Shown: positions 9,861 through 40,171 of the stretch, piece by piece
How the letters are laid out: each line of letters opens with the position of its first letter
How positions within the stretch are numbered: position 1 is the stretch's first letter
Assembly: GCA_030407005.1 (NCBI GenBank)
Contig: JAUDYN010000011.1
Coordinates: 1,602,501-1,666,500, forward strand
Length of the DNA stretch: 64,000 nt
Reading direction: 5' to 3'
DNA from: Desarmillaria ectypa
Lineage: Eukaryota; Basidiomycota; Agaricomycetes; Agaricales; Physalacriaceae
Notes under the pieces: generated by a model
Told to the model about the DNA's origin: nothing
The model's input: the letters and a program-made list of their open reading frames with translations, nothing else
Database searches by the model: none
Position numbers and translations under genes: made by a program

Positions 9861-12800
9861 TTAGGACACATAATATAATGCTTGTCCAGCATTCACTGAT
9901 TCCCCAGGTTGGACCACAATAGCTGTAACAGTCTTCCCAACCTCTTCCTCACCAAAGTTGATCGCAACCTCGGTCTTCATCGCTTCGAGAATTATCGCGG
10001 TTTCCATGCTCGATTTGATCTGATGCCCAACCTCGACTTCAACCTTCCACACATTCGCAGACAGAGGACTTGATACTGGAACACCCGAGTCATCTGACGT
10101 GCTGTTGTTCCCCCCAGAAGACTGCTCCGCTTCTTTGGCAGCTATCCAATCTTTGAACAGCTCCTCTTCCCTATGAGGGGCGTAGCAAAATCAGCAAGAC
10201 TCAAATGATACAGAAAAGTCACTAGTCACACCTCAAAGCTTCCGCTGCGCTCATTGCCTTCTGCGTCTTGATGATAGCATCCACCTCGGCTTGATGCGCT
10301 TTGTTCTGTTCAACGTACTCCGACAAAGAAAACAATACCTTCCTGACTTCCGGCTTGAACTTGCCTGCTTTGAACGCCCGAGAGAGCTAGTCCTTGTGAA
10401 TAATGGATTACATTCATAAACGAAAATAGCAGACCTTGAGGTACTCTTCCTCTGAAACCCGATACCACTCAATCTGATCGAATCTCTTCATCATGAAATG
10501 AGAGCCGTTCCATGTATCTAAAGCCGGTCAGAAAAACTGGACAGGCCGCAGATGCATGACTTACTCCAAGTGCTTAGAGTCCGACCAAGTAGCTGATACC
10601 CGCCCGCTGATTCCAATGGATATATAGAGCCAACAACTCCTGCCAAACCAACGGCGCCTTCAGGTGTATAAAGTCTTCATCGCGAAACATCAATTCAGGC
10701 TACAAAAGGACTCGATGAATTAACCTAGTTGGGTTGTACTTTTGCCCTAAGAGGCGCTTTCGGGGATCCATCTGGAAGTGGAAATATTGTTTAACTGTTT
10801 GTTGCGAGCAAAAATTTTGCAATGTGCGTACCGGAGAGATAAAGGGCAAGCCGACAACTGACACCAACGAATAATGAGTCGATGGTATTCGAGGTGCGTC
10901 GCGCAGCACTCACAGAACCCAGTCCCAAAAACTAACCATGGAGATGCTAGCATTGAGTCGGTGACCTCGGACTTCGATTTCATCCCGCTGCACCGTGCAA
11001 TGTACTCCTGTAGCCGACAATCAGCAGGTTATAAAATCCCCTATCAAAAACCGACGTACCACATTGTTTGGTAGATACACCGCCTGCGATCGGACTGTTT
11101 TCATGTACCGGTCTACAGCGTCTTGGCACCACGAGTCGTCGGGGACCTTGAAGACAATCAGCGCCTCATACATGAACCGGTCATTAACTCCACTTACCAG
11201 AGGCATCCGGTATACATCTACCTCAAGGGGCGGCATGTGCATCGCGTCGGGAAGATCAGCATCAACCTCGATCATTATCTTCAGTAATGCCTCCGCATCA
11301 GTGACTCGCTCATCAAAGTGTATCATCAAGCTTCGAATTAGCAAAAGCGTCGTCAAGATTCCTGGAATCTGGCGCTTGTTGAGCTCGCGTGAAAACGACT
11401 CCAATCTCGCACAGATAACGACGTCAAGACGCATCGGACCGACTTCCAGGAAGAGGAAGGAATCTCCGACCTGGCGTATCTTACTTTCTGGGCGGAGAGC
11501 CGAGGCCGGTATATGTGCGCGTAAGGACGATTCAGGTATTTGACCGGTGGCAATCCACTCCAGTATGCCTGAAGGTGTCACGGTCGAGGTTTCGAACTTG
11601 ATGCTCGCCTCGACGGCAGCAAGCCAGGTATCGTTACGTTGGTGTAGGCAAGGTGCGTCGCTCTGGCTGATCCCCTTGAACATGATGGTGTCGCCTGGTC
11701 GTATCTGACCCAGCTTCCAAAGGGAAGCAGCGGGTACTATATGGCAGTTGATTGTCAGCGAAGATATGATCTTGAAAGAAAAGCGAACCTTACCATTGAG
11801 GACGTTAGCAAAACCGCCAGCATCAGGAGCATCGACGCCAAATAGAACGGGAGTATCACCGTTCACATTGAGCGCCCCAATCGAATCTAATTAACGTCGT
11901 TGAGCTTTGGTGGGGAAAGCGGTAATTTATACTTACAGCCTACAAATCAAAGATCAGCCTCGATATTTTTATGAGAATATCAATCATGACAGACCTTGGT
12001 CAACCACGTTGGAAGGATGGGAGCCACCTTCTCCACCATGCTTTCTCGCCCACTTGATTCGAGGACCTTCCAACCTAAGCCCACTGCGTCCACTTGAAGG
12101 ACTTACCTTCCACTTTGCTGATGTGAGCATTTCCTGCCCTTCTTGGGACAGATACTCATAATCCCATTGCGCCGCCGGCAGAACCTCAATATTCCATTCA
12201 TTGGGATAACGAGGAATAAGATGCTCCGGAACAGGAGCAGCAACATCGTCAACAGGGTCACACTGCGGGCTAAGGGAGAGAATGTCTCCTTTGACGAGCT
12301 GCCGGCCTTGATATCCTCCAACTCCGACCAACATCAGCGTGCTCTTGGAACCCATAAAACTAGCCGAACCAGGCAAACCACCGAAAACGGCGATATATGC
12401 GCGCAGTCCATGCGTCGACTATGATACACAGCGATTGATAAACCAAAGACACAAGCTAATGCAAATAAGACTTACAGTTCCAATCTTGAGGACACTGCCA
12501 GCCTTGATCGATAGACGCGTCCACATCCTTACAGGCGCGCCATCCAGTGTAACTGGACTTGCGGCACCGGTAACTGCAACTGCTGTTGCTCTGTGAAACT
12601 TGAGGGTGGGACCACTAACATCATGGATAAAATGGTCAGGCAGTTGGAGAGACAAACGCGGATTGCTCACATCATCGTCGCCTCGAGTAGCTCTGTTTCT
12701 AGCTTGTTTCTAACCAACATGTTGGCGACCTTCGCGGCAAGCATGTCCGCTGCACCACCGAGAGGAATGCCATTACCGACTGTCGGTCGTCCTGGAAGAT

Positions 12801-14569
12801 CCTGTATCGTCGTCAAAATACCGGCTTCCAGCACCTCTATAGCGCGAGGGATGAATTCCATCGTCGACAAGTAGGTCGTCGTCACCTTAAGTAAAATATG
12901 AAAACGATGCCACGGAAGACATGAGGATAGAGCTTACCTGACCAAGCTGGAACTGCGCGCTCCGCACGATTTCAGCAAGATATTCGAGGTTATTCGGAGG
13001 ACCAAGGATCGACGTTTCTACGAGTACTTCCTCCATCCGTTTCAGAGCTTCTGTACGATCAGCACCGGAAACGATGAGTTTGGCGACCATTGGGTCGTAA
13101 TTGGGTGTAACGTGCACTCCCGTACCCACCCAAGTGTCGATGCGGAGCCAAGGACGGGGCTCAGCCCACTGAACGAGATGAAGCGTCCCGGGAGAGGGCT
13201 GGAATTGTCCATACATAGGGTTTTCGCAATATACCCGAGCTTCAATCGCATGTCCTGTGGGGCTTGAATGCACCGGTATCTCGTCCGCACTCAACGACAA
13301 ACCGACCTTTTGCTTGAGACCGAGCTTAATCATGAGCTCGACGAGATCCAGTCCGGGATTGATCATTTCGGTGACGGCATGCTCGACCTGGATTCTAGCA
13401 TTGAGCTCGAGGAAGTAGAAGTCGCCGGTTTCATCGTCGACAACGAATTCAACGGTACCGGCCGAACGGTAATTGATGCTGGAGCAGAGACGAACAGCGG
13501 CTTCGCACATCGCCTTCCTCACGTTGGCACGTCCGTCGTTCAAGAATGGACTAGGACCCTCTTCGATAACTTTCTGTGAATAATCAAGATGTTGACTGTA
13601 CGAAGATGGTGATATTCCTACTAACCTGATGCCGTCGCTGTACGCTACATTCTCTCTCAGAAAAATGGGTAACAAAGCCTTCACCATTGCCGAAAACTCT
13701 GGAAGCAGGATGAGAATGCAAATCAAGTCCGAACATAATGAACACCCGCACTGTATCTCTATATGGCGAGCTTGTCTGACATATTTCTCCAAAAATACGG
13801 CAGAGTTCTTGAACAGCGCCTGCCATGTGAAGGAAGACGGTGAACAAGGAAATCAGATTGGACGCCTTATAACCACTTACACCACCCTTGGCCTGTGTAG
13901 CAACGAAATGCTTCTCAAGATCGCTAGACTCTTCACATATTTGCATACCCATACCTCCACCTCCACCGGTCGCTTTGAGCATAACGGGATAGCCTATCCA
14001 TTGTGCTGCGGTCAGCGCTTGTTCAAGCGTGTCGACAATGCCATCGCTCCCAGGGACAACAGGTACACCTGCTTCGATTGCGACTTGTCGCGCTTCGTGC
14101 TTTAGACCCATCTTGGTCATCTGCTCGGGGGTAGGTCCTAGGAAAGTGATGCCTTCGTTCTGACATAATTTAGCAAAGTCCTAACGGTGGCAGTCAGCAA
14201 AAGGATTTCAGCTGAGGTCGGATAACGCGTTGATCACGACACGGAGGCGCATCAAGTACAAGATGCGACGAGATCGGGCGTACTCACTGGATTTTCAGAA
14301 AGGAAGCCATATCCAGGAGCAAGAAGTGTTGCGCCTGACTTCTTAGCAATAGCCACAATTTCGTCCATCTCGAGGTATCCTCTGGGGTTCGACCCTTCGC
14401 CATCAGGACCATGCCCGACAGCGTAAGCCTCGTCTGCAAGGGCAACATGTGGCGCCGACGCGTCGACATGGGTATAAATGGCGACAGTCGGTATTGACAG
14501 CTTTTTGGCGCTGTTGAGGATTCGGACGGCAATTTCACCACGGTTCGCGACGAGCAGTTTACAGTCCAT
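9861..14569 (-). CDS. Urea-carboxylase-type biotin-dependent carboxylase, probable lactam carboxylase (LamA-like)
   Basis: A single-chain biotin enzyme split by many short introns. Order from the start [18 protein letters not shown] (14569): biotin carboxylase N-domain; ATP-grasp with the glycine-rich loop [14 protein letters not shown]; the segment [38 protein letters not shown]. Next is a KipA/PxpC-type domain ([20 protein letters not shown], then [20 protein letters not shown] and [18 protein letters not shown]), then a KipI/PxpB-type domain ([14 protein letters not shown], with [15 protein letters not shown] and QKYNPTR). A C-terminal biotinyl domain with EAMKTEV (Lys biotinylated) ends ALYYVS at 9861. 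This is the domain set of urea carboxylase without the allophanate-hydrolase amidase half of fungal Dur1,2. The nearby LamB/YcsF gene suggests the substrate is a lactam rather than urea. Urea carboxylase remains the main alternative. Confidence 0.85.
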
Positions 14570-15657
14570 GGCGTAGAGTGAAAGAAATCAAAGAGAAACG
14601 CCCAGAAGGAGGTGGCGCTGAACTTTCCCCTAGTAGCATGCTGCTAATGGTCTTGGCCCGGGCGAAAACAAACTGGCCGCGCCTCTGTAATCGGTTTACT
14701 GATAAGCTCTTATCACGGGGCATGGAGTAAGTATGCAAACCTTAGGGAACCACGGCGGAATTAACAGGGGCATCATTGGGCGAAAATGATAACAAAAGAG
14801 TAGCCGGTCCTATTTAGCCGGTGCAAAAAAATGCGGCACTTCCCCAATTTGGACATCACCGCTTTGAATTTGAACCGACACCTACTGGAAACAAGCACTC
14901 CGTCTTGCGTACCTATTTTCCTCCACTCGTATCTTTATGAAATAGCGCCTCCTGATCGATCGTCGGGACGCCTAGAAAATCCCTCAAAATCATGTGAAAT
15001 TCAGGTTCATAACCTAGAGTCTCTGCGCGATACTGACTTGTTTTTCCAAGTTAACATAGAGCATATGTACCATTTACATGCTAAGTCGTCTTATCTTTTG
15101 ATAGTTTTCTCGTTGGGGTAAGTCATATTCCCACAAGTAGTATCAAATGCAAAAGATTGACTGAAAATAGGTTCGATCCATGGATAAATATTCATTCTCT
15201 TCCGTCCAGACAATATTCCCATCCCTGAAAGTCTATTATAATTTCAAAGTGAGGCGCCCCATTAGGCCCTGGAAGTCTCCGGTTCGTTACCCAAATCTTC
15301 GTATCAAACGTTGTTGTTCAATTTGATGATGATAGTGGATAAGAGGTGTTTGCCAAGGAGGATGGCGCGGAAAGCGCAGAATCTTGACCCTGGATTCCAA
15401 TCCTGTCTTGCTCTTCATCCATATACCGAAATTACTCAAGCGTGCCGGTGATAAGTGCCGCTGGGTATTATTAGCCATCGTTTTTTTTTAACCAGGAATT
15501 TTACTAATAACGAATGTGGACATTAGGATACGGATACAGATAACGAAGAAGTACTTCTTGCAAGGGTGGACTCCAGATGAATGCAAGTTCGCCCGCCCTC
15601 AACCTGTGCTTCCGATCTTCTCTGTTCGCCTCTCTTGATCTTGGTCTTCCCTGAGCA
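14570..15657. promoter_or_regulatory. Divergent intergenic region between carboxylase and DUR3-like transporter
   Basis: About 1.1 kb separate two divergent genes. No gene is convincing here. Besides the palindrome at 14700-14715 it has GATAAG at 15338-15343 and TGATAAG at 15449-15455, close to the transporter start. It probably holds the regulatory sites of both genes. Confidence 0.5.
14700..14715. promoter_or_regulatory. Inverted pair of GATA-factor sites (TGATAAG-CT-CTTATCA)
   Basis: Two TGATAAG half-sites face each other with a 2-nt spacer, giving a 16-nt palindrome. It sits 131 bp upstream of the carboxylase ATG and inside the shared region between the carboxylase and the transporter. 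GATA sites of this form bind AreA/Nit2-type nitrogen regulators in fungi. Function here is inferred. Confidence 0.5.
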
Positions 15658-18380
15658 ATGCAGATTCAACCCATATTCTCCCCCGGCTTCGGCTATGGAA
15701 TTGTGAGTCATGCTTTCTATCGTGCCGTGTTCATTCCCTCATGGCTGTGAAATAATCAGGTCATCGGGTTAGGCGCAGCGTTTGCCATCATCATGAGTAT
15801 TGTCGCGTGGGGTCTCAGCAGATATGCCGGCGAAACGCAAGACTCAGAGATGCAAATGACCGCCAAAAAGTCAGTGCGTACCGGTCTTTTGGCTGCGTCA
15901 GTTGTCTCGTCCTGGACTATTGCTGGTCGGTTGTGTTTTTTTCTTCGCACGAGGTTGATTTTCTCACTTCTTGATAGCAACTCTTCTTACATCAACTGCA
16001 TATGGATACTCTTACGGTGTCTCTGGTGGCTGGTGGTACGGTGCTGGGGCTTGCGTGCAAATCTTGTTATTCACAGCTTGTGCAATCGAGCTTAAACGTC
16101 GCGCTCCGGCTGCTCATGTAAGTTTAGATCTCACCATATTCCTGATGCACGCTAATAGGCGTATGCTAAGACTTTTGCCGAAGTTGTCAAAGTTCGCTTT
16201 GGACCAGCGGGGCACTTCACTCTTGCCTTCTACTCGTTCTTGTATCAGTTATTCGCCTCGGTCAATTTGCTAGTCGGCGCTGGCTCTATTTTCTCTACTT
16301 TGACAGGAATGAGGTGGGTTCATATTCTAACGCCGCATTTTATAAGTCTGTTCATCCACGTTATAATCTAGCGCCGATGCAGCTTGTATGCTTCTACCAA
16401 TTGGTGTAATTATCTATTCCGCGCTCGGAGGTAGCATCAATCCCTCTCGTCCTGTGTGCCTGATTAAACCGTATGACAGGGATCAAGTCTACCTTCCTGT
16501 CTGACTATGTCCACACTTTGATCATCTACATCATCTTGCTCATATCTGTTGTCGTCGTTTACGGCACATCGAACTTGATAGGATCTCCAGGAGATATGTA
16601 CGAATTGCTTCGCAAAGCAGCGGCTGCCCATCCCATCGATGGTAACCAAGACGGAGAATATCTGACCATGAAATCTCTTTCCGGTGGTCTCGTTGGTAAA
16701 TTTGCGCTCTAAGTGTACATGTACGGAGTACTTACTCTGAGATCTTTTTAGGCGCCGTGTTTGTAGGAAGCGGCTTCTCGTAAGATTTCTATCCCTTCTA
16801 CAACGTCGTTATATATTCAGATTTTTCATCCAGCGCCGCCGTTGACTCGCAGCTGTTTCAGAAGGTAGTTAATCCCTACTTCTCTTATAACTTTTAGTTG
16901 GCTGACTGAGCAAATTCAGGCTATCGCAGCAAACCCGGAGAGCACCATCGGCGGATACCTTTTGGGAGGAACCGCCTGGTTTGCTATCCCCTTCTGTCTC
17001 GCCAGTACTTGGGGTCTCGCGGCTGCAGCTCTAGAAAGCCACCCCTCATGGCCTACCTATCCTGATCGCTTGACGGCGGCTCAAGTATCTGAGGGATTAC
17101 CAATGCCATTGGCCGCCCTGACAGTTCTTGGTAAGGGTGGTGCCGGCGCCGTCATTGTAAGTATTCCAATCTCGTCGCCAGACGAGAAGTCTCTGAGTCT
17201 TGAATTCAGGTTATGCTGTTCATGGCTGCGACAAGTGCTATGAGCTCTGAGACAATGGCCGTCACCGGACTGGTTACCTATGATATCTACCGAACTTACA
17301 TTAACCCCAAGGTGCGCGCTGCATGATTATTCGAGTTTCCGTGATCTCAGATGATAACATCGTTATTAGGCCTCTGATAGACAGTTGAAAACTATTGCCC
17401 ATCTTACTGTCATCCTTTTCGGTCTTTCTGTTGGCGCCATTGCTTGTGGTTTCCTCCATGCTGGGTTCTCTGTCAACTTCATCGTCACCGCCATTGGTAT
17501 TGTTGTCGACAGGCTAGTTCAACAAAAATGAATCCTTGAACAGTAATCTTACTTGCATATTTGGGCAGTGCCGTCATTCCTATGGTCTGTACGCTCACTT
17601 GGGCACGAATGAACACCCTTGCGTGTGTTGGTGCTCCCATCCTTGGTTCCTCAGTCGCGCTTGTGGCATGGTTTGTCTCCACAAAACACTATTCTGGCGA
17701 GATCACCATCGACACCCTCTCTACTCTCAAACCATTGGCTCTAGGAAATGGTATTTCCATCATTGCACCCATCGTTTTCGTGCCCTTGTTGTAAGTAATC
17801 ATTTGTCCTGCGTATGCTGTGTTCTGACCACCATCTGCTTAGGACTTTCATTGGCGGCAACCAAAACTTTGATTGGAACCGTCTCAAGCACGAGATCACA
17901 GCTGTGAAGGCTCACGGCGACGATCATGAGCATACACGCTCCACTGACGATGACGAAAAAGAGACTGACGACAAGGAGAAGGACGAAACTAACACCACGA
18001 TCATAGAGGGGTCGGATGAGCTAGTCGAGGTTGACTTGTCCGCCCATGCCGAACGTGTCTTGAAAGCGGGACTAGCGAAGGCACTTTGGGCTGCAACCGC
18101 CATGACGCTCATTTTCTGCGTTTTGGTTCCCCTTCCTATGTATTTCACTGGCTACGTCTTTTCCAAGGGTAAGGATGCTATCTTTTGTCGCATGTTTATG
18201 AGCGAGCTGACGCCGTCTCTTTTAGGATTTTTCATCTTCTGGGTTGTGACGATTTTCCTTTGGGCATTCTACGCTGCGCTGACCATCGGTATTCTTCCCT
18301 TATGGGAAGGCCGCTTCGGTATCACCGCCTTCGTCAGAGGATTATGGAAGGATGTAAAGCAGTTTTCTTCTCGCACCTGA
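15658..18380 (+). CDS. DUR3-like sodium:solute symporter (SSS family)
   Basis: Plasma-membrane transporter of the SSS/SLC5 family, closest in feel to the urea/polyamine transporter DUR3. The first exon is [15 protein letters not shown]; after an intron, [20 protein letters not shown] forms the first membrane helix. Later blocks include [70 protein letters not shown] and [20 protein letters not shown] text, all typical of DUR3. An acidic, Lys/Asp/Glu-rich cytoplasmic loop is encoded around 17920-18040. The last helices are [19 protein letters not shown] and the protein ends KQFSSRT at 18380. About ten introns of 50-60 nt. It is divergent from the carboxylase, so the cargo may be a lactam or GABA rather than urea. 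The cargo is inferred from context only. Confidence 0.85.
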
Positions 18381-19320
18381 ACAGAGAGTGAAGGTGTATT
18401 TTTATTGGGTTAACGATATTTGGATGACAGGCTGAAAATGCCCCGATTGACGTATTCTATCTACATACTGGATAACTATATAATGCGAAGGTTATATGAT
18501 ACAAGTGTACTGCTCAGTAGTAAACTGGGTAATAAAACTAGTGCTTTTCAATGACACTACGCCATAGAGGTCGGATTTCTCATAGAAACCACGTCGAAGT
18601 CCTGAACTCTTCTGCCACGGTGCGCAGGATGACAGATTCACCTGCGGGAATGTAGATTGGTTCAGTATCGGTTACGCAGCACGTCTGGCATATTTTTCCA
18701 GGAAATTTTTGCGCTGTGAGTCTGCCACTAATTTTCATCAGCGTGATAGACGAGGGACGCACCGGCAAAGCATTAAGATCACTTGGTAACTAAAGGATGA
18801 GTAGCCAGTATAAATCACCAAAGTAAAGATGCAGCGGTAATGAAAGTGGTAATGACATCTTATTAGTGTACTCAACAGCAGAACCTTGTGCATTCAACGC
18901 TTTTCCAAGTCTAGCATAGAGTATACATACTATAAAAATAAGAATAAGCACATGGTTGCTCTGAGGGACGGAGTGCATGAGATAATCTGTTGAAGGAACG
19001 CCTGGGCTACAGATCGAAGGATTTAGAAACGACGATACGTTTCCTGCGCTGGATGAAGACAGTCAGCACAAACAATAGGCACAGCCTGGATGATTCAATC
19101 TCATATATAGTACTTCCTCAGTGTCACCAATTTTATTTCCTCGGCTCGACTTGCAAAATCGAATGCCCGAGTCTATTTTTGTGAATTCATTAGGATGACA
19201 TGTTTCGTGTCTCTTCAATATTTGGATATACGACGCGTCTAGTTCCGCGCGCCCACTTGGATCGTGTTCTACAATATTAATTACAACTGCAAACACCCTT
19301 CTGTATTCACGTTACTCATT
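18381..19320. other. Intergenic, no gene seen
   Basis: About 940 bases between the convergent transporter and dehydrogenase genes. Only short shadow frames are present. It should hold both 3' ends. Confidence 0.5.
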
Positions 19321-21126
19321 TTAGGCTCCAATGCCTCCAAAGACAATAAGCTTCTCGTTCATATACTCATCAATACCACGAGGCCCTCCCTCACGTCCAA
19401 TCCCACTCTCCTTGATTCCTCCAAACGGTATCGCCGCCTGGGTGATCATGCCCACATTAGTCCCCACCATTCCTACCTCGAGCTTCTCTGCTACGCGCCA
19501 GACACGACCGACATCTCTTGAAAAGAGGTAGCCAGCAAGGCCGACATCGACGTTGTTCGCCAGATGGAGGACCTCCTCTTCTGTCTCAAACTTAGTCAGA
19601 GATGCTAGTGGGCCAAAGGTCTCTTCGGTGTTGACTAGAGCATCGGTGGGGACATCAGTGAGGATGGTGGGGTGGTAGAAGGATGATGAGGGATCATCAG
19701 GAGTTATGGGTTTACCCCCAATAACAACTGAGGCACCTCGAGATACGGCGTCCTCGACATGAGAGTGCACTTTCTCCAAGGCGCGACGGTGAATAAGAGG
19801 ACCATGAGTCCTGCAGACCTTATAAGAATGCGGGGAAGCGAACAACAAGCAGGCTTACACTCCGTCCGCGACACCATTGCCGACCTTGAACGCTGACACC
19901 TGTGCCGCCAGCTTGGACGCAAATTCGTCGTAGACAGAAGCGTGGACATAAAGACGATTAGCGCAGACACAAGTCTGTCCACCACCACGGAACTTGCAAG
20001 CTATAGCAGCAGCGACTGCTTCGTCAATATTCGCATCATCGAACACGATAAAAGGCGCATTTCCGCCAGCTTCGATCGATATCCTGGGTGAGAAATCGAT
20101 ATGAGAACACGAGAGAAATAAGGGTATCACCCACTTTTTTAATGTGCTCGCGGCCATGCTGTACAGCAATTTGGCGACATTGGTCGAACCAGTGAAGGTG
20201 ACCTTTTTGACAATCTTGCTCTCGCACATCTCCTTACCAACTGATACCACATTCTTCTGAGTAGTCACAATGTTGACGACACCTGGAGGGAAGCCTGCCC
20301 GGTTACAAAGCTAGTGATATCTTGAGAATGAGTCGACAGATTTCAGATTAGAAGCCTACTTCTGCCAATGCAAGCGCGCTGAAAGGAGTCTCGGGAGCAG
20401 GTTTAATGACAGCCGTGCATCCAGCAGCCAATGCGGCACCAAGCTTACGGGTGATCATGGCTGACGGGAAGTTCCAGGGAGTAAGAATAGCCACGACACC
20501 GACTGGTTGTTTGATGACAACATTTCGGAGTCCAGGAACGACTGAAGGGATATGGTCTCCGTAGGTGCGAAGCGCCTCTGCCGCGTACCAATCAAGAAAC
20601 GACGCGCTGTATCTATTCTCACCCTATGGTGAATGATCATTGAGATTAGCATCATCGATCAAGATCAAAAACACACCCACAATCGCGTCAGAAAGAGCCT
20701 TTCCGTTCTCAATGGTGATCAATCGAGAGAGATCGTCATGGTGCTCAACCATGAGATTATGTAGCTTATTGAGAAGTTCTTGTTTGTGCTAAACATCAAA
20801 TCAGATCGCTTTTGGAATGCGAAAAACGCATATTCACTTTGGGTGTGGTCGCGCTCCATGAAGGGAAAGCTCTCGCAGCAGCATCGATGGCTTCCTTGGT
20901 CTCCTCGAGACCCATATCTGGCACGGTTGCAAGCTCCTCTAGCGTTGCCGGGTCTAGATGCAAAAATGATAAATTTTTCAGAGTGATACAAAACGCCAGG
21001 GGACTCACTGGTCACCTGGAACGTTGATCCATCCTTCGCATCCACCCATTTCCCATCGATGAGTCCCTGGGTTTTAATGAGCGAAGAATCTTTGAGATCA
21101 AAGACAGAAGGATTGAAGGGAGCCAT
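19321..21126 (-). CDS. Succinate-semialdehyde dehydrogenase-type aldehyde dehydrogenase
   Basis: NAD(P)-dependent aldehyde dehydrogenase that would oxidise succinate semialdehyde to succinate, the last step of GABA catabolism. The start [20 protein letters not shown] at 21126 is followed by [17 protein letters not shown]. The NAD-binding [12 protein letters not shown] block, the general-base segment [20 protein letters not shown] and the catalytic Cys motif [17 protein letters not shown] are all intact. The C-terminal part has [14 protein letters not shown] and [21 protein letters not shown], a strong SSADH (GabD/UGA2) signature, and ends FGGIGA at 19321. An in-frame upstream extension to 21324 exists but lacks family similarity, so I chose 21126. 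No mitochondrial presequence is evident with this start. It is divergent from the LamB gene with a 272-bp shared promoter. Confidence 0.88.
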
Positions 21127-21398
21127 TTCTTGGTGAAAAGTCGAATGCGGAGCAGGAGGATGCGAAAAACAAATCGGCCTTGGTACGCAACATTTGCAAG
21201 GAAATTTGACACCCGGTAAATGCCGATTGGGCTGATCTTTGATACCCGAAATCCTGGCCCCGGCTGCCGTCAATACGGACAGGAACTGTAAGGATATAAA
21301 ACCAAGATAACACGGGTTAATCAATTTGCTTTTACGCCGGCAGCTTAACTTCCTGGGTCAGCGGATAAGTATCACCCTTTTTCGACGTGCTGAACGCC
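21127..21398. promoter_or_regulatory. Divergent promoter of SSADH and LamB-like gene
   Basis: 272 bp between two divergent starts. It contains GATAAG at 21364-21369, only 30 bp before the lamB start, a GATAAC near 21305-21310 and a TATAAAA near 21295. The short shared promoter suggests co-expression of the two genes. Confidence 0.55.
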
Positions 21399-22508
21399 AT
21401 GAAGATATCAATCAATTGTGACATGGGCGAGGCGTTTGGCCGTTGGAAGCTGGGGCCAGACGAGGAGCTCATGCCGTTCATCGACTATGGTGAGCTCGAC
21501 AACATTCAGTTACGAAGTTCTCATGCTTCTGTGTATTTTCAGCGAACGTCGCATGTGGGTTCCATGCCGGTGACCCGTCAATCATGCTGAGGACCATACG
21601 ACTCGCCAAGAAGTATGGAGTCAAGGTCGGGGCGCATCCAGGACTCGACGATATCAAGGGTTTCGGCCGTCGTGAGATTGATGTCAAGCCTGAGGAGCTC
21701 TATGCGCAGACCCTTTACCAGGTTGGAGCGTGTAAGGCGATCCTGGAGGCAGAAGGAATGTCTCTTCACCACGTCAAAGGTGTGTCTGATGGCACGCCGC
21801 TTTGGATGTTAATATATGACCGACCCGTTTCCAGCGCATGGGAAACTATATTTCATGATGGTGTGTCAGCGCATCCCGTCTGATGACGACTTGGAACTTA
21901 CTTGATTACACAGACTAAATCAGAAGCCGTCGCGGATGCAGTTGTTAGAGCTATTGCATCATTCAAGGTCCCCATGTTTGGTCTTTCCGGTACGTTGCAC
22001 GAAACGAGCGCGAACAAGTACGGCGTTCCTTTCCATCCGGTACGCCTCATTGAGACCTGTTAGTCGAGTCTAATTTGGTTGTCTGGCAGGAAACCTTTGT
22101 CGACATTGACTACAGTCCGGGGGGACAACTGCAACCGGTCGACTTTGACAATCTAGTGCGCCCCAAAATGATTAAGAAGAGGATTCAGAGTCTAGTGGAA
22201 ACAGGGTGTGGTTAGTATCTCATTGACATTGTGTAGAACCCCACAATACTGACAAACCTCTTGTGGGCTTTACTAGGAATTGACAACACTGGTGCACCTC
22301 TACCCTTCCTGTTCGCCAAGCAACCGAAGGGAGGACTGCCACAAGTACCGGAGGAAGCGTACACCATCTGCCTACACGGAGACATGCCAAGTGCGATGGA
22401 GAACATCAAAGGGTATGGCAGCGTGCTGAACCGATGACAGCATAACTGATTGGTTTTCTTCTTCGTAGTGCACGCGAGGGCATTAATGCTGCTGGCGTGA
22501 ATCTGTGA
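21399..22508 (+). CDS. lamB: LamB/YcsF family protein (PxpA-type lactam-opening subunit)
   Basis: Member of the LamB/YcsF family, named after the lactam-utilisation gene lamB of Aspergillus nidulans; bacterial PxpA of the 5-oxoprolinase PxpABC belongs here too. The protein starts [20 protein letters not shown]; after an intron comes [20 protein letters not shown], then [20 protein letters not shown], where the conserved His and Asp residues of the fold are visible. Later exons give [54 protein letters not shown] and a block with [10 protein letters not shown]. It ends [11 protein letters not shown]. Length (about 250-280 residues after splicing) fits the family. Its partner carboxylase domains are the single large protein at 9861-14569. 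About six introns. Confidence 0.88.
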
Positions 22509-23295
22509 ATTATGGCTACGAAGGATCGACAACATGAAAAGATTACTTACTACATATGCTTAAGCTGCAGTTCAGCCGAATTCTACCATATGCCCGACGT
22601 TTCGCTTTGCAAGGAAACCTGACCGCGCAAATAAAACATGTCGAATGGGTCACAGTATTCTTGGGTTGAGGAATGATTGGCAAAGTACCGGCGCGACAGT
22701 TCAAATGTTCAGTGCTCATCGGTACGATGCAAATTGTAGTTCTGATATCATTCCGGCACCCTCGGTGAATATAGCGGTTACCGCCTTTTACAGAACCTCT
22801 GGTACTTCGTAAAAAATGACACCTGACAAAATTATGAGAGATAGCCTCAGCTTATTAAATTTCATTGAGACGTACCCAAACCGAATCCAACGACTCGAAC
22901 TGCCATGCGTGGTCATCAGCTGCCATAATTTAATACGAATAGCTACCAATACGTTGCAAATTTTGTGGTTCTCGAGAGCATATGAGAAGATGAAGGAGAG
23001 AAAAAGCAAGGATATGACACTGATGAGGTGGTTCTGAACGGAGTTGAATTGCCGGAACCATGCACGTGACGCAAATAGTCATGGCAATATCTATCGCGAC
23101 GACCTGCTCCAATGCCTTCTACTTTCAGGGCGCCGCCCGTACGTTACAGATGTACGACATAACCCAACGATAACAAGCCAAAGACAAGTATTATACGGTA
23201 CGTCACGAGTCATCTGTATGCGTCATTTTTGTATCGTCCAAACCTACACTCACAAACAAACCTCGAGGCACCCAGTCCAGCGTCCCAAAATATAA
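22509..23295. other. Intergenic, no gene seen
   Basis: About 790 bases between convergent lamB and the aminotransferase. No supported gene. Confidence 0.5.
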
Positions 23296-24934
23296 TTAAG
23301 AGCTCTCCTTAACAACCTCCCTGATCGACTCCGCAATGATATCGCAACCCTTCTTCATGTCCTCCTCGGTAATATTGAGAGGAGGAATGAGACGCAAGAC
23401 CTCGAAGGCACTCGTCGTCAAAATGAGAAGGCCCTTCTTGACGCATCGCTTCATCACCTTTGCTGCGAGGCCAGGGGGGATATCAGAAGCGGCTTGCGAA
23501 ACAAGACCCGACTTGATCTCAGCAGGACCAGCAGGCGCACTGAACTCGAGGCCAATCATGAGGCCACGGCCGCGGACGTCGAGGATGTACTTGCCGACTT
23601 CAGGGTCAGCTGCGAGTGCGTTCAGTGCGTCGAACGCCTGCTTGGAGCTGTAAAGAAAAATGACAATTAGAATGGGAGACACACCGATGCTTTCATAGCC
23701 TACCGGGCGCGAACGTTAGGGAGGATGTCACCGCCCTTCATGATCTTGGCAACTTCGACGGCGGCAGCACAAGAAATGGCACTACCGGCGTAGGTTCCAC
23801 CCATTGATCCAGGTGGTAGCTTGTCAGTGAGCTCCTTTCGGCTAATAACACCACTGAGAGGGAAACCGTTCGCGAGACCCTTGGCAATGACCAGGATATC
23901 CGGCCTGACTCCACTTTGTTCAATAGCAAAGTAGTCACCGCTCCGTGAAAATCCGCTTTGGACTTCGTCGATGATCAGCATAATACCATAGGTGTCACAG
24001 ATCCTGCGAAGTCCCTGGAGGAACTCGACGGGCGTCGAAACGTAGCCACCTTCGCCAAGAATGGGCTCAATGATGATGGCAGCCGTGTCGGTGGGAGCAG
24101 TCTGGCTAGTGAGGACGAGGCCAAGCTGCTTGAGGCAGTGCTCAGACAGTTCGGCGGGAGAGGTTTCCTTGGGGAGACTAAGCGGGTGGAAGTATGGATA
24201 AGGCGTCTGGAAAACACCAGGCATGATGGGGTGGACTCCAGCAGAGTAGATAGTCTTACTGCGCGTGACAGCCATAGCGCCGAATGTGCGACCGTGATAC
24301 CCACTCTGCATACAGATAATGTTTTGCCTGCCTGTCGCGATACGCGCAATCTTGAGAGAGGCCTCAATAGCCTCCGACCCAGAGTTCCAGAAGAAGAAGG
24401 AGTCGAGTGAAGGGTCGGGCATCATGGGAAGGAGCTCCTCAATGAGTCTCACGTACGGAGTGTGGAATGCTATGGAGCACTAGATGGTGACTGAGTCATA
24501 ATAGTGAATTTTATATCCCAAGCGAACACACCTGTCCATGGACTACTGACATACATTGGTCGGCAGCAGCTTTGGAGATTTGGGGATGACAGTGCCCTGA
24601 AAAAAGTGTTGAAATAGAGTACTATTCCATCGATAATCACGACGTACCCAAGGAAGTCACACCGATACCGCAAGTGAAGTCGAGCATCGTACGGCCATCG
24701 TCGAAAGTCATGTACGATCCCGAAGCATTCTTGATGATAGCATCATCAATAACACGCCCAAGACCGTGGGTAGTGTGCTTCTGGCCCAGTGAGAGAAGGG
24801 CTGCGTTCGCGGACGGCATGACGAGGTTGTTATCTGTTGAACGTATTAGCTCCCCAGTTAACATCCGAAATGGAAAAAAAAAAAATACGCACATTGACCA
24901 GAACACGGAAATACGAACGGTTAAGGGCAAACAT
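23296..24934 (-). CDS. Class III PLP-dependent omega-aminotransferase (4-aminobutyrate aminotransferase-like)
   Basis: PLP enzyme that would transfer the amino group of GABA (or a related omega-amino acid) to an oxo-acid, giving succinate semialdehyde. The likely start is MFALNRSYF at 24934, then a short intron and NNLVMPSANAALLSLGQKHT. The large exon 24452-23700 carries FFFWNSGSEAIEASLKIAR, QSGYHGRTFGAMAVTRSK, EPILGEGGYVSTPVEFLQGL, the PLP-contacting IIDEVQSGFSRSG, and the Schiff-base lysine in LVIAKGLANGFPLSG. The final exon ends IAESIREVVKESS at 23296. The text is closer to bacterial GabT-type class III enzymes than to the usual fungal GatA/UGA1. The start exon and its intron are uncertain; MPSANAAL at 24821 is an alternative start. 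Confidence 0.85.
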
Positions 24935-28453: not shown

Positions 28454-29104
28454 TACAGGGTAGGGTTGGCGCTTGCCGTAGTCGCGGTAAGAGTCCAAAG
28501 AGAAAGAAGAAAAAAATGTGGCCACGTGGGGTTGCTGGGGTTAAGGCTTAGAATATTTGCGAAAGTAATTATTGAATTATTCCTGGCTATACTTAAACGA
28601 CCGTAACTTACACTACGCTTAACCAAGGAAACGTTACCGGAAATACGGTTAACAGGAGTTGATACCTCTGAGAATTTAGTAGGTGAAAATTTCCCTACTC
28701 ACTGCTATGACTCGTTTCCAGTGCAGGTTCCTGCATCATGGGGAGACAGATCCAAAGACTTTCAATACTGCCTTCGTCGTTGTGAAACAGCGGAATGTGC
28801 CGCCATGGAATCAACATTAAGCGAAGTTTTCAAAGACAGACATTCTTCGTGCACGTTATGTCGCGACAGTTCTTCAACGCGATCAATATCTGTATACAAA
28901 AGATCTTGCGAAAGCACTGTCGCGACATAACGTGCATGAAGCTTGACTAAACAAAAATGCTATAATTTGTTCGCCGGGAAGGTTGACAAGAAAGTGAACG
29001 ATGCTGATCAAAACCATACAAGCCAAACGTCAGCGGGAGTACCTCGTGCGCCGACATGAATTAACTTATGACTATCAAAAGGAATGCATAAACGGTAGAC
29101 TTGC
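28454..29104. other. Intergenic with a long hairpin
   Basis: About 650 bases between two minus-strand genes. No gene seen, apart from the inverted repeat described separately. Confidence 0.5.
28845..28941. repeat. Inverted repeat, 26-nt arms, 45-nt loop
   Basis: Left arm 28845-28870 and right arm 28916-28941 are reverse complements with one mismatch (a G/A difference near the outer end). Both arms contain ACGTTATGTCGCGACAGT or its complement. The predicted transcript folds into a stable hairpin. It lies between the 5' end of SSZ1 and the 3' end of the DUF4336 gene and is not explained by a coding sequence. Confidence 0.85.
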
Positions 29105-37538: not shown

Positions 37539-38448
37539 AGTTTATGACCTTGAGCGGTTTCAAAAAATCAGCTTACTGTTCATCGAAGATATCTATCTTG
37601 AAACCTCTGGACATAGCAGCTATCCCCGACATGCACCGCACTGAGTCTTTTCCCTAGAGGAACAGACGCCACGGGCCTGCGCAGAAAGAGAGACTATTCG
37701 ACGCAGTAGGATTGAAGTCCCGTGTACTAATGGATTATCATAATTCCCTAGCTTTTTACCCAGAGATGATCCTCAAACCTTGGCCACAACTCGCTCCATC
37801 TCAACTAGACGGCCCCCATAAGCCTCGACCCACAATGGTTGTCGTAGTAACTATTCATATTTCCAGGAACATAGGCACCAGGTAGGATGAGCCATATGGA
37901 TCACGGTGAATACAAGTAAAATCTTTCCAATCGGCACCCCGTTTTGTTCGGTGTCGGACCTCCCCAACTTAACGACACACCTATTCCGCAGTAGTACTGG
38001 CTTGTTATCGCATGACGATGGAACATTCAGATGCATCATTATCCAGGTATAATTGGCTCCTTATATCATAACGAAATATCTGTCTAACGGCAAGTACTTA
38101 GCAACCGCGACGGTAGCGTACTCAGGCACGCCCCATTTTGGCGAAATGGACTCCCATAGCGCATAAATCACTCAGCGATAATGGAACCGCATCAGGCCTT
38201 CGGTACCAATATGACGAAATTTCCGGAGAATCTACGTCCCAACTTCCAATCGATGTCACCTTCGCTCGGCCGTCTGTTGTTGGTGGAAACATAATGGAGG
38301 GGTTGGACTATATAAGCCCTAGAGTTGCATGCCTGGAGAGTCACACAAACCTGTTTCCTTCCCCCATATTTTCTTTCCTTTTTCCTTCCTTCTTTTGACT
38401 GACAGTCGTTCTCGTTACGCTCTCTTTCGTTCAACGCGCCGAACCGAA
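37539..38448. other. Intergenic with AA9 promoter
   Basis: About 900 bases without a supported gene. A good TATA element (TATATAAG, 38309-38316) lies 133 bp before the AA9 start, and a CT-rich tract (about 38355-38400) sits between them, as in highly expressed fungal promoters. Confidence 0.5.
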
Positions 38449-40171
38449 ATGTCTTATCTGAGCTCCCTTCGCTGCAACGCTGCGCTGGTCGTTGCGCTGT
38501 CTCTCCTTACCAGCGTCCGCGCTCACGGATACGTGGAGACATTTGTTTATGGTGGAACAAACTATACTGGTTACCTCCCGTACAACGACCCGTACAGCAA
38601 CCCTGTCCCAGATCGGATTGAACGTGTCATTCCCGGTAATGGTCCTATTCAGGACGTCACCAGCGAGGACATCCGTTGCAACATTGGTGGAACAGCTCCT
38701 GCCGCTCTTTACGCTACAGCTGAAGCTGGTTCCAGCGTCGACATGCACTGGACCACCTGGCCAGCCTCGCATGCGGTAGGCTAATGTTATTTCACTCCAG
38801 TAACTGAGTGTGGTCTAATGAATTATTATAGGGGCCCGTTATAACATACTTGGCTCAAGTTCCCGATGGTAGCAATATTACTTCATGGGAACCAGGTACC
38901 AAGTAAGTTGGCTGCAGTACTATAGAAACTGGAGCAGTCATCTCAATTTGCTATGTTGTAGTGCCGTGTGGTTCAAAGTGGACGAAGCTGGTTACGAGAA
39001 TGGAAAGTGGGCTGCCACTGACATCATGATCAACGAGCAGAACAATGTTTGGCATTGGACCATCCCTTCCGGTCTCAAAGCTGGACAATACCTCGTCCGT
39101 CATGAAATGTTCGTGTTATTGGTTTTGGAATCGAAACTTTCTGTTGATCGTCCTGTTTGCAGTATCGCCCTTCACGCCGCTGGCACCTACCCAGGCGCTC
39201 AATTCTATCCCGGCTGTAGCCAAATCGAAGTCACTGGATCTGGTTCCGACTTCCCCGACTCGTCATACTTGGTGTCCTTCCCTGGAGCGTATGCTGGAAC
39301 TGACCCCGGCATTACCTTCAACATGTACGGTACTTTTGACAGGTTGGCCTTGTGCGTTCTCGTCAATGAAGCGATTCTAATATATCTACACCATATAGCT
39401 ACACAATCCCCGGACCTGCCCTTTGGACTGGTGGATCAGGGACTGCCTCTCGTGCTTCCTCGACAGCTGCTTCCGGTACCTCTTCAACCGCCGCATCCGG
39501 TGCTACCTCCACATCAGCCTCTGGTCCTACTTCCGCTGTTGAGAGCAACCCGGGTCAGTGATATTGAATCAAGCTAATGCTCACAGCGACTAACCTTTTG
39601 TTGGGCAGCGAGTTCGACTAGCGCCTCCGTGTCTTCGTTGGCTAGTACGTCCGTGTCTACGAATGCTGCTATCGCGACATCTGTGTCGGCATCGGCTTCC
39701 GCAACCTCTTTCATATCTTCAACCGTGGCTCAAGTAACTGCCACCAGCACCACCGAAACTTCTTCTGCCGCACAGTCCACCTCCACTGGAACTAATGATG
39801 CAAACCAGTGCATGAACAGTCAGCACAGTCGCCATGACCACTTTGTCATCACTCTGAACCATTTCAACAGCATACAACTCATGCATTGCGGCCTCTCAAC
39901 CTAACCCTGATTGGGCTGGCTGCAGTTCTACTAAGGATTCGTGCCTTGCGAATGCAAGGTACCAACGCCGCAGGTCTTTCTCGAATGCTCGAGTTCTTAA
40001 CAAGCGTGAGTCTTGGAATATCAATCATAGCCGATGCCTTTACGAGCATGCCCGCTAGGTGAAAATTTGAAACGCCACCATTCTGTCTCAAAGCGTGCTC
40101 CGCGGGACAATGCCCGCGCACAGAAGTCGCGTATGTCTCTACTCTTCCTAGTTCTGTTATTTCCTGACTGA
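38449..40171 (+). CDS. AA9 lytic polysaccharide monooxygenase (former GH61)
   Basis: Secreted copper enzyme that oxidatively cleaves cellulose. The signal peptide runs from MSYLSSLRCNAALVV to SVRA, so the mature protein begins with the copper-ligand His of HGYVETFVYGG. The second copper His is in SHAGPVITYLAQ (rebuilt over an intron near 38777-38832), and the axial Tyr is in QFYPGCSQIEVTG. Other AA9 blocks are WFKVDEAGYENGKWA and NNVWHWTIPSGLKAGQYLVR. A Ser/Thr/Ala-rich linker follows, and then a small Cys module. An intron at about 39820-39869 restores CMNTYNSCIAASQPNPDWAG, where the open frame alone reads on to a stop at 39902. A further GTGAGT...CGCTAG intron (about 40009-40058) gives an in-frame basic tail ending LLFPD at 40171; the tail is the least certain part. 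Confidence 0.88.

What the first reader, a model, noticed from the sequence alone, without database searches (positions are those of the whole stretch)
9861..24934. Candidate lactam (2-pyrrolidinone) to GABA to succinate catabolic gene cluster
Five adjacent genes form one plausible pathway: DUR3-like importer, biotin-dependent urea-carboxylase-type enzyme without amidase domain, LamB/YcsF protein, class III omega-aminotransferase and SSADH-type dehydrogenase. Established: in A. nidulans the lam locus is needed to use 2-pyrrolidinone as nitrogen source, and its product GABA is degraded by GABA transaminase and SSADH. In bacteria, PxpA with carboxylase-like PxpB and PxpC hydrolyses 5-oxoproline. 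Inferred: here the carboxylase activates the lactam with biotin and ATP, LamB opens the ring to GABA, and the other two enzymes finish the route. Having the whole route plus a transporter in about 15 kb of a basidiomycete is noteworthy. No pathway-specific transcription factor is in the window.
Basis: partly seen in the sequence, partly recalled or inferred. Interest (0 to 1): 0.9.

Follow-up and report, generated by a model that had tools for sequence, protein, structure and literature searches.

The report
Fungal lactam-to-succinate gene cluster (predicted)
A honey-mushroom relative carries five neighbouring intact genes that probably let it take up a ring-shaped nitrogen compound (such as 2-pyrrolidinone), open the ring to GABA and feed it into central metabolism; the chemistry is predicted, not yet shown.

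Summary
In detail: five intact, intron-rich genes lie at 9861-24934: LamA-type biotin carboxylase, DUR3-like symporter, SSADH, LamB, class III aminotransferase. Nearest relatives of the three genes searched are Armillaria/Desarmillaria. The lactam reading is the best supported.

(1) The carboxylase is not a typical urea carboxylase: it scores below the family cut-off and lacks the Asp (K. lactis 1584) that K. lactis urea carboxylase has; so do all 120 listed homologues. No allophanate hydrolase was detected in the genome, which has urease.

(2) LamA and LamB domains were found nowhere else in the genome; SSADH and aminotransferase have diverged paralogues.

(3) Related ascomycete symporter genes sit next to lamB in three of eight comparable isolates, though this symporter lies outside their clade.

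(4) In bacteria, lamB relatives often sit beside biotin carboxylase and PxpB/PxpC genes, a split LamA.

The carboxylase is not the usual mushroom one: it groups with Tremellomycetes, and joining it to the other Agaricomycetes is strongly rejected.

Open: the true substrate (2-pyrrolidinone or another lactam), whether LamA carboxylates it, what the symporter carries, and co-regulation (only a weak GATA-site excess). A new variant of the A. nidulans lamA/lamB system, not a new kind.

The parts
9861..14569 (-). LamA-type biotin carboxylase (biotin carboxylase, CT_A_B/PxpC-like, CT_C_D/PxpB-like and biotinyl domains; no amidase), 19 exons, 1227 aa
   Evidence: Spliced alignment to A. borealis P0001; 94.0% identity; Pfam; only CT_A_B and CT_C_D locus found in the genome
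14570..15657 (.). 1088-bp divergent promoter region between LamA and the symporter; 8 HGATAR sites against 3.1 expected
   Evidence: Poisson p about 0.014, not corrected for eight patterns tried
15658..18380 (+). DUR3-like sodium/solute symporter, 14 exons, 674 aa; candidate lactam importer
   Evidence: Model; homologues; tree; solved DUR3 relatives
19321..21126 (-). Succinate-semialdehyde dehydrogenase, 7 exons, 498 aa
   Evidence: Model; TIGR01780 665.8 bits against cut-off 646.35
21127..21398 (.). 272-bp divergent promoter region between SSADH and LamB
   Evidence: Gene models
21399..22508 (+). LamB (LamB/YcsF, PxpA family), 7 exons, 258 aa; presumed ring-opening subunit
   Evidence: Model; PF03746 263.8 bits; PxpA subfamily model 240.4 against cut-off 226; only copy found in the genome
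23296..24934 (-). Class III omega-aminotransferase, GabT-like, 5 exons, 468 aa; presumed GABA transaminase
   Evidence: Model; PF00202; best solved relatives are named 4-aminobutyrate aminotransferase

Best explanation
The five genes form a dedicated catabolic cluster for a cyclic amide, most likely 2-pyrrolidinone. The DUR3-like symporter imports it. LamA loads CO2 on biotin with ATP and transfers it to the ring nitrogen; LamB hydrolyses the activated ring (the carbamate then loses CO2), giving GABA. The class III aminotransferase makes succinate semialdehyde and SSADH makes succinate. Shown here: the gene content, intactness, lone-copy status of LamA and LamB, family assignments, and genomic linkage of the same families in other fungi and bacteria. 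Inferred: substrate, N-carboxylation, transport, and joint control.
For: Five intact genes of one plausible route in 15 kb. LamA and LamB domains found only here in the genome. In A. nidulans lamA and lamB serve lactam and gatA/gabA omega-amino-acid catabolism under one regulator, AmdR (PMC8016842, passages), and that fungus is grown on 2-pyrrolidinone as sole nitrogen source (PMC8683493, passage). Carboxylase below the urea-carboxylase cut-off, 1209.9 against 1303.85, and without the Asp at K. lactis 1584. No allophanate hydrolase detected, urease present. Both isolates that I found in the LamA and the LamB list (2 of 2) are linked: adjacent locus tags in Cryptotrichosporon argae, one contig length in Cryptococcus sp. 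DSM 104549; UC and LamB also share a segment in Trichoderma (PMC8675399, passage). A related symporter and LamB have adjacent locus tags in 3 of 8 isolates in both top-120 lists and share a contig length in 2 more. In bacteria, biotin carboxylase stands near lamB in 40 of 80 loci and PxpC-like and PxpB-like genes in 65 each. PDB entry 9yx5 holds a biotin-dependent carboxylase alpha3 subunit and both allophanate-hydrolase subunits, the parts of a split LamA. SSADH passes its family cut-off.
Against: No assay, expression or growth data. The aminotransferase reaches the cut-off of none of the 25 families shown, GABA transaminases included. LamA keeps the Asn (K. lactis 1330) typical of urea carboxylase and its best full-length model is still urea carboxylase. 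The symporter's strong solved relatives are urea transporters; all five lamB-linked symporters sit in a 23-row ascomycete clade (SH-aLRT 98) that leaves the armillarioid ones out. Three of 8 isolates have lamB and the symporter relative unlinked. No 8-mer is shared by all three promoter regions. In bacteria a class III aminotransferase stands near lamB in 13 of 80 loci, an aldehyde dehydrogenase in 4, both in 1, an SSF symporter in 1.
Confidence: 0.66

Rival explanations
1. Same cluster logic, different ring: the enzymes open another lactam or cyclic amide (delta-valerolactam, epsilon-caprolactam, or a substituted pyrrolidinone), and the aminotransferase and dehydrogenase handle the corresponding omega-amino acid.
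For: The aminotransferase meets no GABA-specific cut-off among those shown; GabT/GabD-type enzymes accept longer omega-amino acids (recalled). LamB differs from its relatives at three conserved columns (C94, A110, G235) and has an 11-residue insertion at 214-224.
Against: SSADH passes the SSADH model. For A. nidulans the passages speak of lactam and of growth on 2-pyrrolidinone; that lamA/lamB mutants fail on 2-pyrrolidinone is recalled (Katz and Hynes 1989).
Confidence: 0.17
2. Urea use: the carboxylase is a urea carboxylase fed by a DUR3 urea importer, and the other genes are unrelated neighbours.
For: TIGR02712 is the best full-length model and the transporter's strong solved relatives are DUR3. 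Database names call many homologues urea carboxylase. Asn1330 is kept.
Against: Below the curated cut-off; Asp1584 missing in 121 of 121; no allophanate hydrolase match extends past profile position 409 of 563; urease present; two further DUR3-like loci elsewhere (31-54% identity on aligned pieces).
Confidence: 0.06
3. 5-oxoproline use: LamA plus LamB form a biotin-dependent 5-oxoprolinase giving glutamate.
For: LamB passes a PxpA subfamily model, and bacterial PxpABC is a 5-oxoprolinase (PMC13274462, passages).
Against: PxpB and PxpC equivalog cut-offs not met (37.7 against 145.55; 150.7 against 500). The genome has two Hydantoinase_B loci, the family of the other kind of 5-oxoprolinase (their function is recalled, not tested). 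A glutamate product would not need a GABA transaminase and SSADH next door.
Confidence: 0.08
4. Chance neighbours: genes of separate roles that happen to be adjacent.
For: No shared promoter 8-mer; SSADH and aminotransferase have paralogues elsewhere.
Against: LamA-LamB and LamB-symporter neighbourhoods recur in distant fungi.
Confidence: 0.03

Closest known systems
Aspergillus nidulans lamA/lamB with gatA and gabA under AmdR/IntA
   Same: Same two ring-opening proteins by family and the same downstream GABA logic (PMC8016842, passages).
   Different: By recall, in A. nidulans the GABA genes are not beside lamA/lamB. Here a GabT-like aminotransferase, an SSADH and a DUR3-like symporter sit in the same 15 kb; no regulator was found in the window.
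Bacterial lamB(pxpA)-accC-pxpB-pxpC neighbourhoods (biotin-carboxylase type)
   Same: Same parts list as LamB plus LamA: biotin carboxylase at 38-47%, PxpC-like at 26-40%, PxpB-like at 23-36% identity to LamA's domains.
   Different: Biotin carboxylase is fused to the PxpC-like part in 0 of 80 loci (it shares a frame with a PxpB-like part in 2); both GABA-type enzymes are near in 1 of 80.
PxpABC 5-oxoprolinase (e.g. pxpTABC of Corynebacterium glutamicum)
   Same: PxpA is LamB's family; LamA's CT domains match PxpB and PxpC models below cut-off.
   Different: The text of PMC13274462 holds the word carboxylase 0 times and gives PxpT to another transporter family (passages); the product is glutamate.
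Urea amidolyase / urea carboxylase (K. lactis, PDB 3va7 and 5i8i)
   Same: LamA aligns over its length with the urea carboxylase part.
   Different: No amidase part, Asp1584 missing; non-amidolyase fungal urea carboxylases are a separate lineage (PMC3073912, abstract).
UC- and LamB-containing 5-6-gene segment in Trichoderma tri5 region GR1
   Same: UC and LamB in one segment; its authors write that whether it is a urea utilization cluster is not known (PMC8675399, passage).
   Different: Partners named there are an NADPH dehydrogenase, an MFS transporter and a zinc-finger factor, not a DUR3-like symporter and GABA enzymes.

Membership tests
Urea carboxylase (TIGR02712) | Curated score cut-off 1303.85 bits | tested here: not met
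   1209.9 bits
Urea carboxylase (TIGR02712) | Asp at K. lactis position 1584 | tested here: not met
   A gap in the window and in all 120 homologues, all with residues on both sides; 1 of 121 has an acidic residue within 3 columns. PMC11410670 states the rule for guanidine carboxylases; K. lactis urea carboxylase, my only reference, has the Asp
Urea carboxylase (TIGR02712) | Asn, not Asp, at K. lactis position 1330 | tested here: met
   N720, and Asn in 121 of 121; rule from PMC11410670 and PMC12186494 (passages)
Urea carboxylase (TIGR02712) | Allophanate hydrolase partner | tested here: inconclusive
   9 weak TIGR02713 matches, best 90.7 bits, none past profile position 409 of 563; the search goes exon by exon
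Fungal lamA/lamB lactam system | LamA-type carboxylase without amidase | tested here: met
   Domains; Aspergillus relatives at 38-39%. The A. nidulans protein itself was not compared
Fungal lamA/lamB lactam system | LamB protein close to LamA | tested here: met
   PF03746
Fungal lamA/lamB lactam system | Need for growth on 2-pyrrolidinone | not testable with these tools
   needs knockouts
Fungal lamA/lamB lactam system | Control by an AmdR-type regulator | tested here: inconclusive
   No uninterrupted Zn2Cys6 motif in the window; the rest of the genome was not searched for it
PxpABC 5-oxoprolinase | PxpA | tested here: met
   NF003814 240.4 against 226; the four other PxpA models are under their cut-offs
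PxpABC 5-oxoprolinase | PxpB and PxpC equivalog cut-offs | tested here: not met
   37.7 against 145.55 and 150.7 against 500
GABA transaminase (TIGR00700 and other equivalogs) | Curated cut-off | tested here: not met
   TIGR00700 300.7 against 506.65; none of the 25 families shown (of 69 matched) reaches its cut-off
SSADH (TIGR01780) | Curated cut-off | tested here: met
   665.8 against 646.35
DUR3 urea transporter | Sequence family | tested here: met
   Solved DUR3 chains, best E 2.6e-109; PF00474 63.1 against 22.8; the superfamily model TIGR00813 is just missed, 183.7 against 184
DUR3 urea transporter | Transports urea | not testable with these tools
   In the tree it joins Jaapia (SH-aLRT 89) in a 35-row group (91) with the ascomycete clade that holds the five lamB-linked proteins, but outside that clade (98); four other agaricomycete rows fall outside the 35

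The most novel reading that the evidence does not exclude
Fungal amidase-less 'urea carboxylases' as a class, including this one, are not urea enzymes but biotin-dependent N-carboxylating lactam/amide activators that hand the activated ring to LamB where LamB is present, and this symporter with its lamB-linked ascomycete relatives carries lactams, not urea; the armillarioid fungi obtained or kept a tremellomycete-like LamA and built a full lactam-to-succinate cluster around it.
Probability: 0.27. Interest if true: 0.72.

Novelty: new variant of a known kind. Interest (0 to 1): 0.52.

Why it matters
If right, it gives one locus holding every step from lactam import to succinate in a mushroom, names a candidate lactam transporter for test, and argues that a large set of proteins named 'urea carboxylase' in fungal databases is misnamed. 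It would also make the proposed chemistry of LamA/LamB (carboxylation before ring opening) directly testable with two proteins.

Tried and rejected
Urea, 5-oxoproline and chance readings: see rivals. A shared promoter motif: no 8-, 9- or 10-mer common to all three upstream regions; only a modest HGATAR excess (16 against 6.7 expected over the three, p about 0.0016 uncorrected), too weak to claim nitrogen control. Descent of LamB from ascomycetes: not rejected (AU p 0.101); the best tree instead joins it with Tremellomycetes at 89/87, and from that tree I had left out the long-branched Cryptococcus sp. DSM 104549 LamB, which in the larger quick tree did not join the other Tremellomycetes. Bacterial full-pathway operon: not found. 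First ab initio gene models for LamA, LamB, symporter and aminotransferase were replaced by a spliced alignment or hand models. The first extraction of the Asp1584 column hit a wrong stretch for most rows and was replaced, rechecked.

Rows used: 53, then 24, of 120 listed LamB hits; 37, then 22, of 120 LamA hits; 44 of 120 symporter hits. The AU groups were taxonomic but were tested after I had seen the quick tree. In the count of eight isolates I left out rows without a name and pairs from different strains (e.g. Exophiala xenobiotica, Fusarium falciforme); one unnamed pair (P0235, P0308) shares a contig length and was not counted. A paper search for a DUR3 cryo-EM substrate site found nothing.

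On checking I found that the symporter lies outside the lamB-linked clade (my note, says inside and is wrong), and that the window's LamB is only modestly nearer to the biotin-carboxylase-linked bacterial loci. I therefore lowered the best explanation from 0.68 to 0.66 and the novel case from 0.30 to 0.27, and raised the other-ring rival from 0.15 to 0.17.
Full report
WHAT IS THERE. The stretch 9861-24934 holds five genes, all intact in my models: LamA-type carboxylase (minus, 19 exons, 1227 aa), DUR3-like symporter (plus, 14 exons, 674 aa), SSADH (minus, 7 exons, 498 aa), LamB (plus, 7 exons, 258 aa) and class III aminotransferase (minus, 5 exons, 468 aa). Two pairs are divergent: LamA/symporter share 1088 bp, SSADH/LamB share 272 bp. 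Pfam confirms every family. The LamA model was guided by its A. borealis relative, so its 94.0% identity leans that way. The window lies in a 40.6 Mb, 32-contig assembly. Best hits of the three genes searched are Armillaria or Desarmillaria, so this is an armillarioid basidiomycete or close kin; the species is not known. Flanking genes are of other kinds: an enoyl-CoA hydratase and a zf-UBP gene on one side, an HSP70-family gene on the other.

GENOME CONTEXT. LamB, CT_C_D and CT_A_B were found only here. Urease is present and two Hydantoinase_B loci are present, so urea and perhaps 5-oxoproline have other enzymes. Nine weak matches to the allophanate hydrolase model were found, the best 90.7 bits against a cut-off of 511.05, none past profile position 409 of 563; general amidases are present. 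Because the search goes exon by exon, this is not final. SSADH has a relative on C23 (59% over tblastn pieces) and the aminotransferase one on C17 (53%, on a 28-kb contig); the symporter has two, on C3 and C32, at 31-54% on aligned pieces. The cluster thus holds its own copies of the downstream enzymes. The best match to the eukaryotic GABA-transaminase model in the genome is the cluster gene itself, far under cut-off (73.9 against 567.15 bits).

IS IT A UREA CARBOXYLASE? TIGR02712 gives 1209.9 bits against a cut-off of 1303.85. PMC11410670 (passages) requires Asp at K. lactis 1584 of guanidine carboxylases and tells them from urea carboxylases by Asp at 1330; PMC12186494 (passages) gives Asn to urea carboxylases. 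K. lactis urea carboxylase has Asp1584. In the window protein and in all 120 listed homologues that column is a gap, with residues on both sides in 121 of 121; one of 121 has an acidic residue within three columns; Asn1330 is kept in all 121. At this place the window reads GTGFFVGLPF, near the stretch seen in solved PxpB-type chains (2zp2, 9yx5_W). My reference for true urea carboxylase is one protein. That fungal urea carboxylases without amidase are a lineage apart from urea amidolyases is published (PMC3073912: abstract, passages and one section).

LINKAGE ELSEWHERE. By my reading of the two top-120 lists, eight named isolates appear in both the LamB and the symporter list. Locus tags are adjacent in three (Scytalidium lignicola, Ascochyta lentis, Claussenomyces sp. 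TS43310); two more share a contig length (Pestalotiopsis sp. NC0098, Phlyctema vagabunda); three are unlinked (Cylindrodendrum hubeiense, Capronia coronata, Biscogniauxia sp. FL1348). The lists give one contig length per protein cluster, so the last two groups are less sure. Two isolates appear in both the LamA and LamB lists: adjacent tags in Cryptotrichosporon argae, one contig length in Cryptococcus sp. DSM 104549. A Trichoderma segment with UC and LamB is in print, its role called not known (PMC8675399, passage).

BACTERIA. A biotin carboxylase stands nearby in 37 of the 48 nearest to P0225 (52-73%) and in 3 of the other 32; some loci are short. The window's own LamB is only modestly nearer to the first group (median identity 41.5% against 37.8%); ranked by its score, biotin carboxylase is near in 27 of the top 40 and 13 of the other 40. 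PxpC-like and PxpB-like genes are each near in 65 of 80, an aminotransferase in 13, an aldehyde dehydrogenase in 4, both in 1, an SSF symporter in 1. PDB entry 9yx5 lists a biotin-dependent carboxylase alpha3 subunit with allophanate hydrolase subunits 1 and 2, the parts of LamA as separate chains in one entry; I saw no paper on it.

DESCENT (taxon labels from the organism names, recalled). In the careful tree of 23 rows the armillarioid LamA is sister to Tremellomycetes (100/99), while the other Agaricomycetes join Dacrymycetes (97/98). Holding armillarioids with the other Agaricomycetes costs 149 log units (AU p 8.6e-71); holding them with Agaricomycetes plus Dacrymycetes costs 57 (p 1.65e-4). 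A transfer from a tremellomycete-like source, or an old second copy lost in other mushrooms, would explain this; the data do not choose. LamB leans the same way weakly (89/87 with three Tremellomycetes, one long-branched one left out; ascomycete descent not rejected, p 0.10). Among the 120 listed LamB relatives no other Agaricomycete is named, but 7956 passed the threshold and only 120 are shown. The symporter joins Jaapia (89) in a 35-row group (91); the five lamB-linked ascomycete symporters lie in a 23-row clade of that group (98) that leaves it out.

CONTROL OF EXPRESSION. HGATAR sites are 8, 1 and 7 in the three upstream regions against 3.1, 0.8 and 2.8 expected. This fits nitrogen control but is weak and one of eight patterns tried; no 8-mer is shared by all three.

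MECHANISM. Best reading: import by the symporter; LamA charges biotin with CO2 using ATP and carboxylates the ring nitrogen; LamB opens the ring; aminotransferase and SSADH carry GABA to succinate. In A. nidulans lamA/lamB serve lactam and gatA/gabA omega-amino-acid catabolism under AmdR (PMC8016842, passages), and 2-pyrrolidinone is among its sole nitrogen sources (PMC8683493, passage); the original genetics (Katz and Hynes 1989) are recalled. Shown: genes, intactness, copy number, families, linkage. Inferred: substrate, chemistry, transport, co-regulation. Against it: the aminotransferase meets no GABA-specific cut-off shown, Asn1330 is urea-like, three of eight isolates are unlinked, the symporter is outside the linked clade, and the promoters share no word.

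NOVELTY. A new variant of the lamA/lamB system. My ten paper searches listed no paper that by title or abstract start describes this five-gene cluster or lamA/lamB in Armillaria; the library lacks most subscription papers, and the Armillaria gene-transfer paper (Sahu et al. 2023, seen only as a reference) was not read. In the main text of the armillarioid paper PMC10470841 the words lactam, urea, LamB, pyrrolidinone and GABA do not occur.

Noticed in passing
Homologues (Agaricomycetes, e.g. P0014, P0035, P0043): Many mushrooms carry a different amidase-less 'urea carboxylase' that also lacks Asp1584, yet no LamB of theirs is named among the 120 listed LamB hits; its substrate is unexplained.
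   Followed up: partly
window 28838-28948: 37-nt inverted repeat, 86% complementary, with 37 nt between the arms, in DNA next to the HSP70-family gene.
   Followed up: partly
window 61950-62984: Retroelement frame with Pol_BBD, GAG-pre-integrase and zinc-knuckle domains, Copia-like by recall, near the right end of the window.
   Followed up: no
window 38323-38784: Part of an AA9 (lytic polysaccharide monooxygenase) gene.
   Followed up: no
window 21399-22508 (LamB residues 94, 110, 214-224, 235): Armillarioid LamB has an 11-residue insertion missing in at least 114 of 120 relatives, and differs at three columns conserved in at least 117 of 120.
   Followed up: partly
G000:C17:1-1400 (L034): A second aminotransferase gene of this kind starts at the edge of a 28-kb contig, so it may be cut off by the assembly.
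   Followed up: partly
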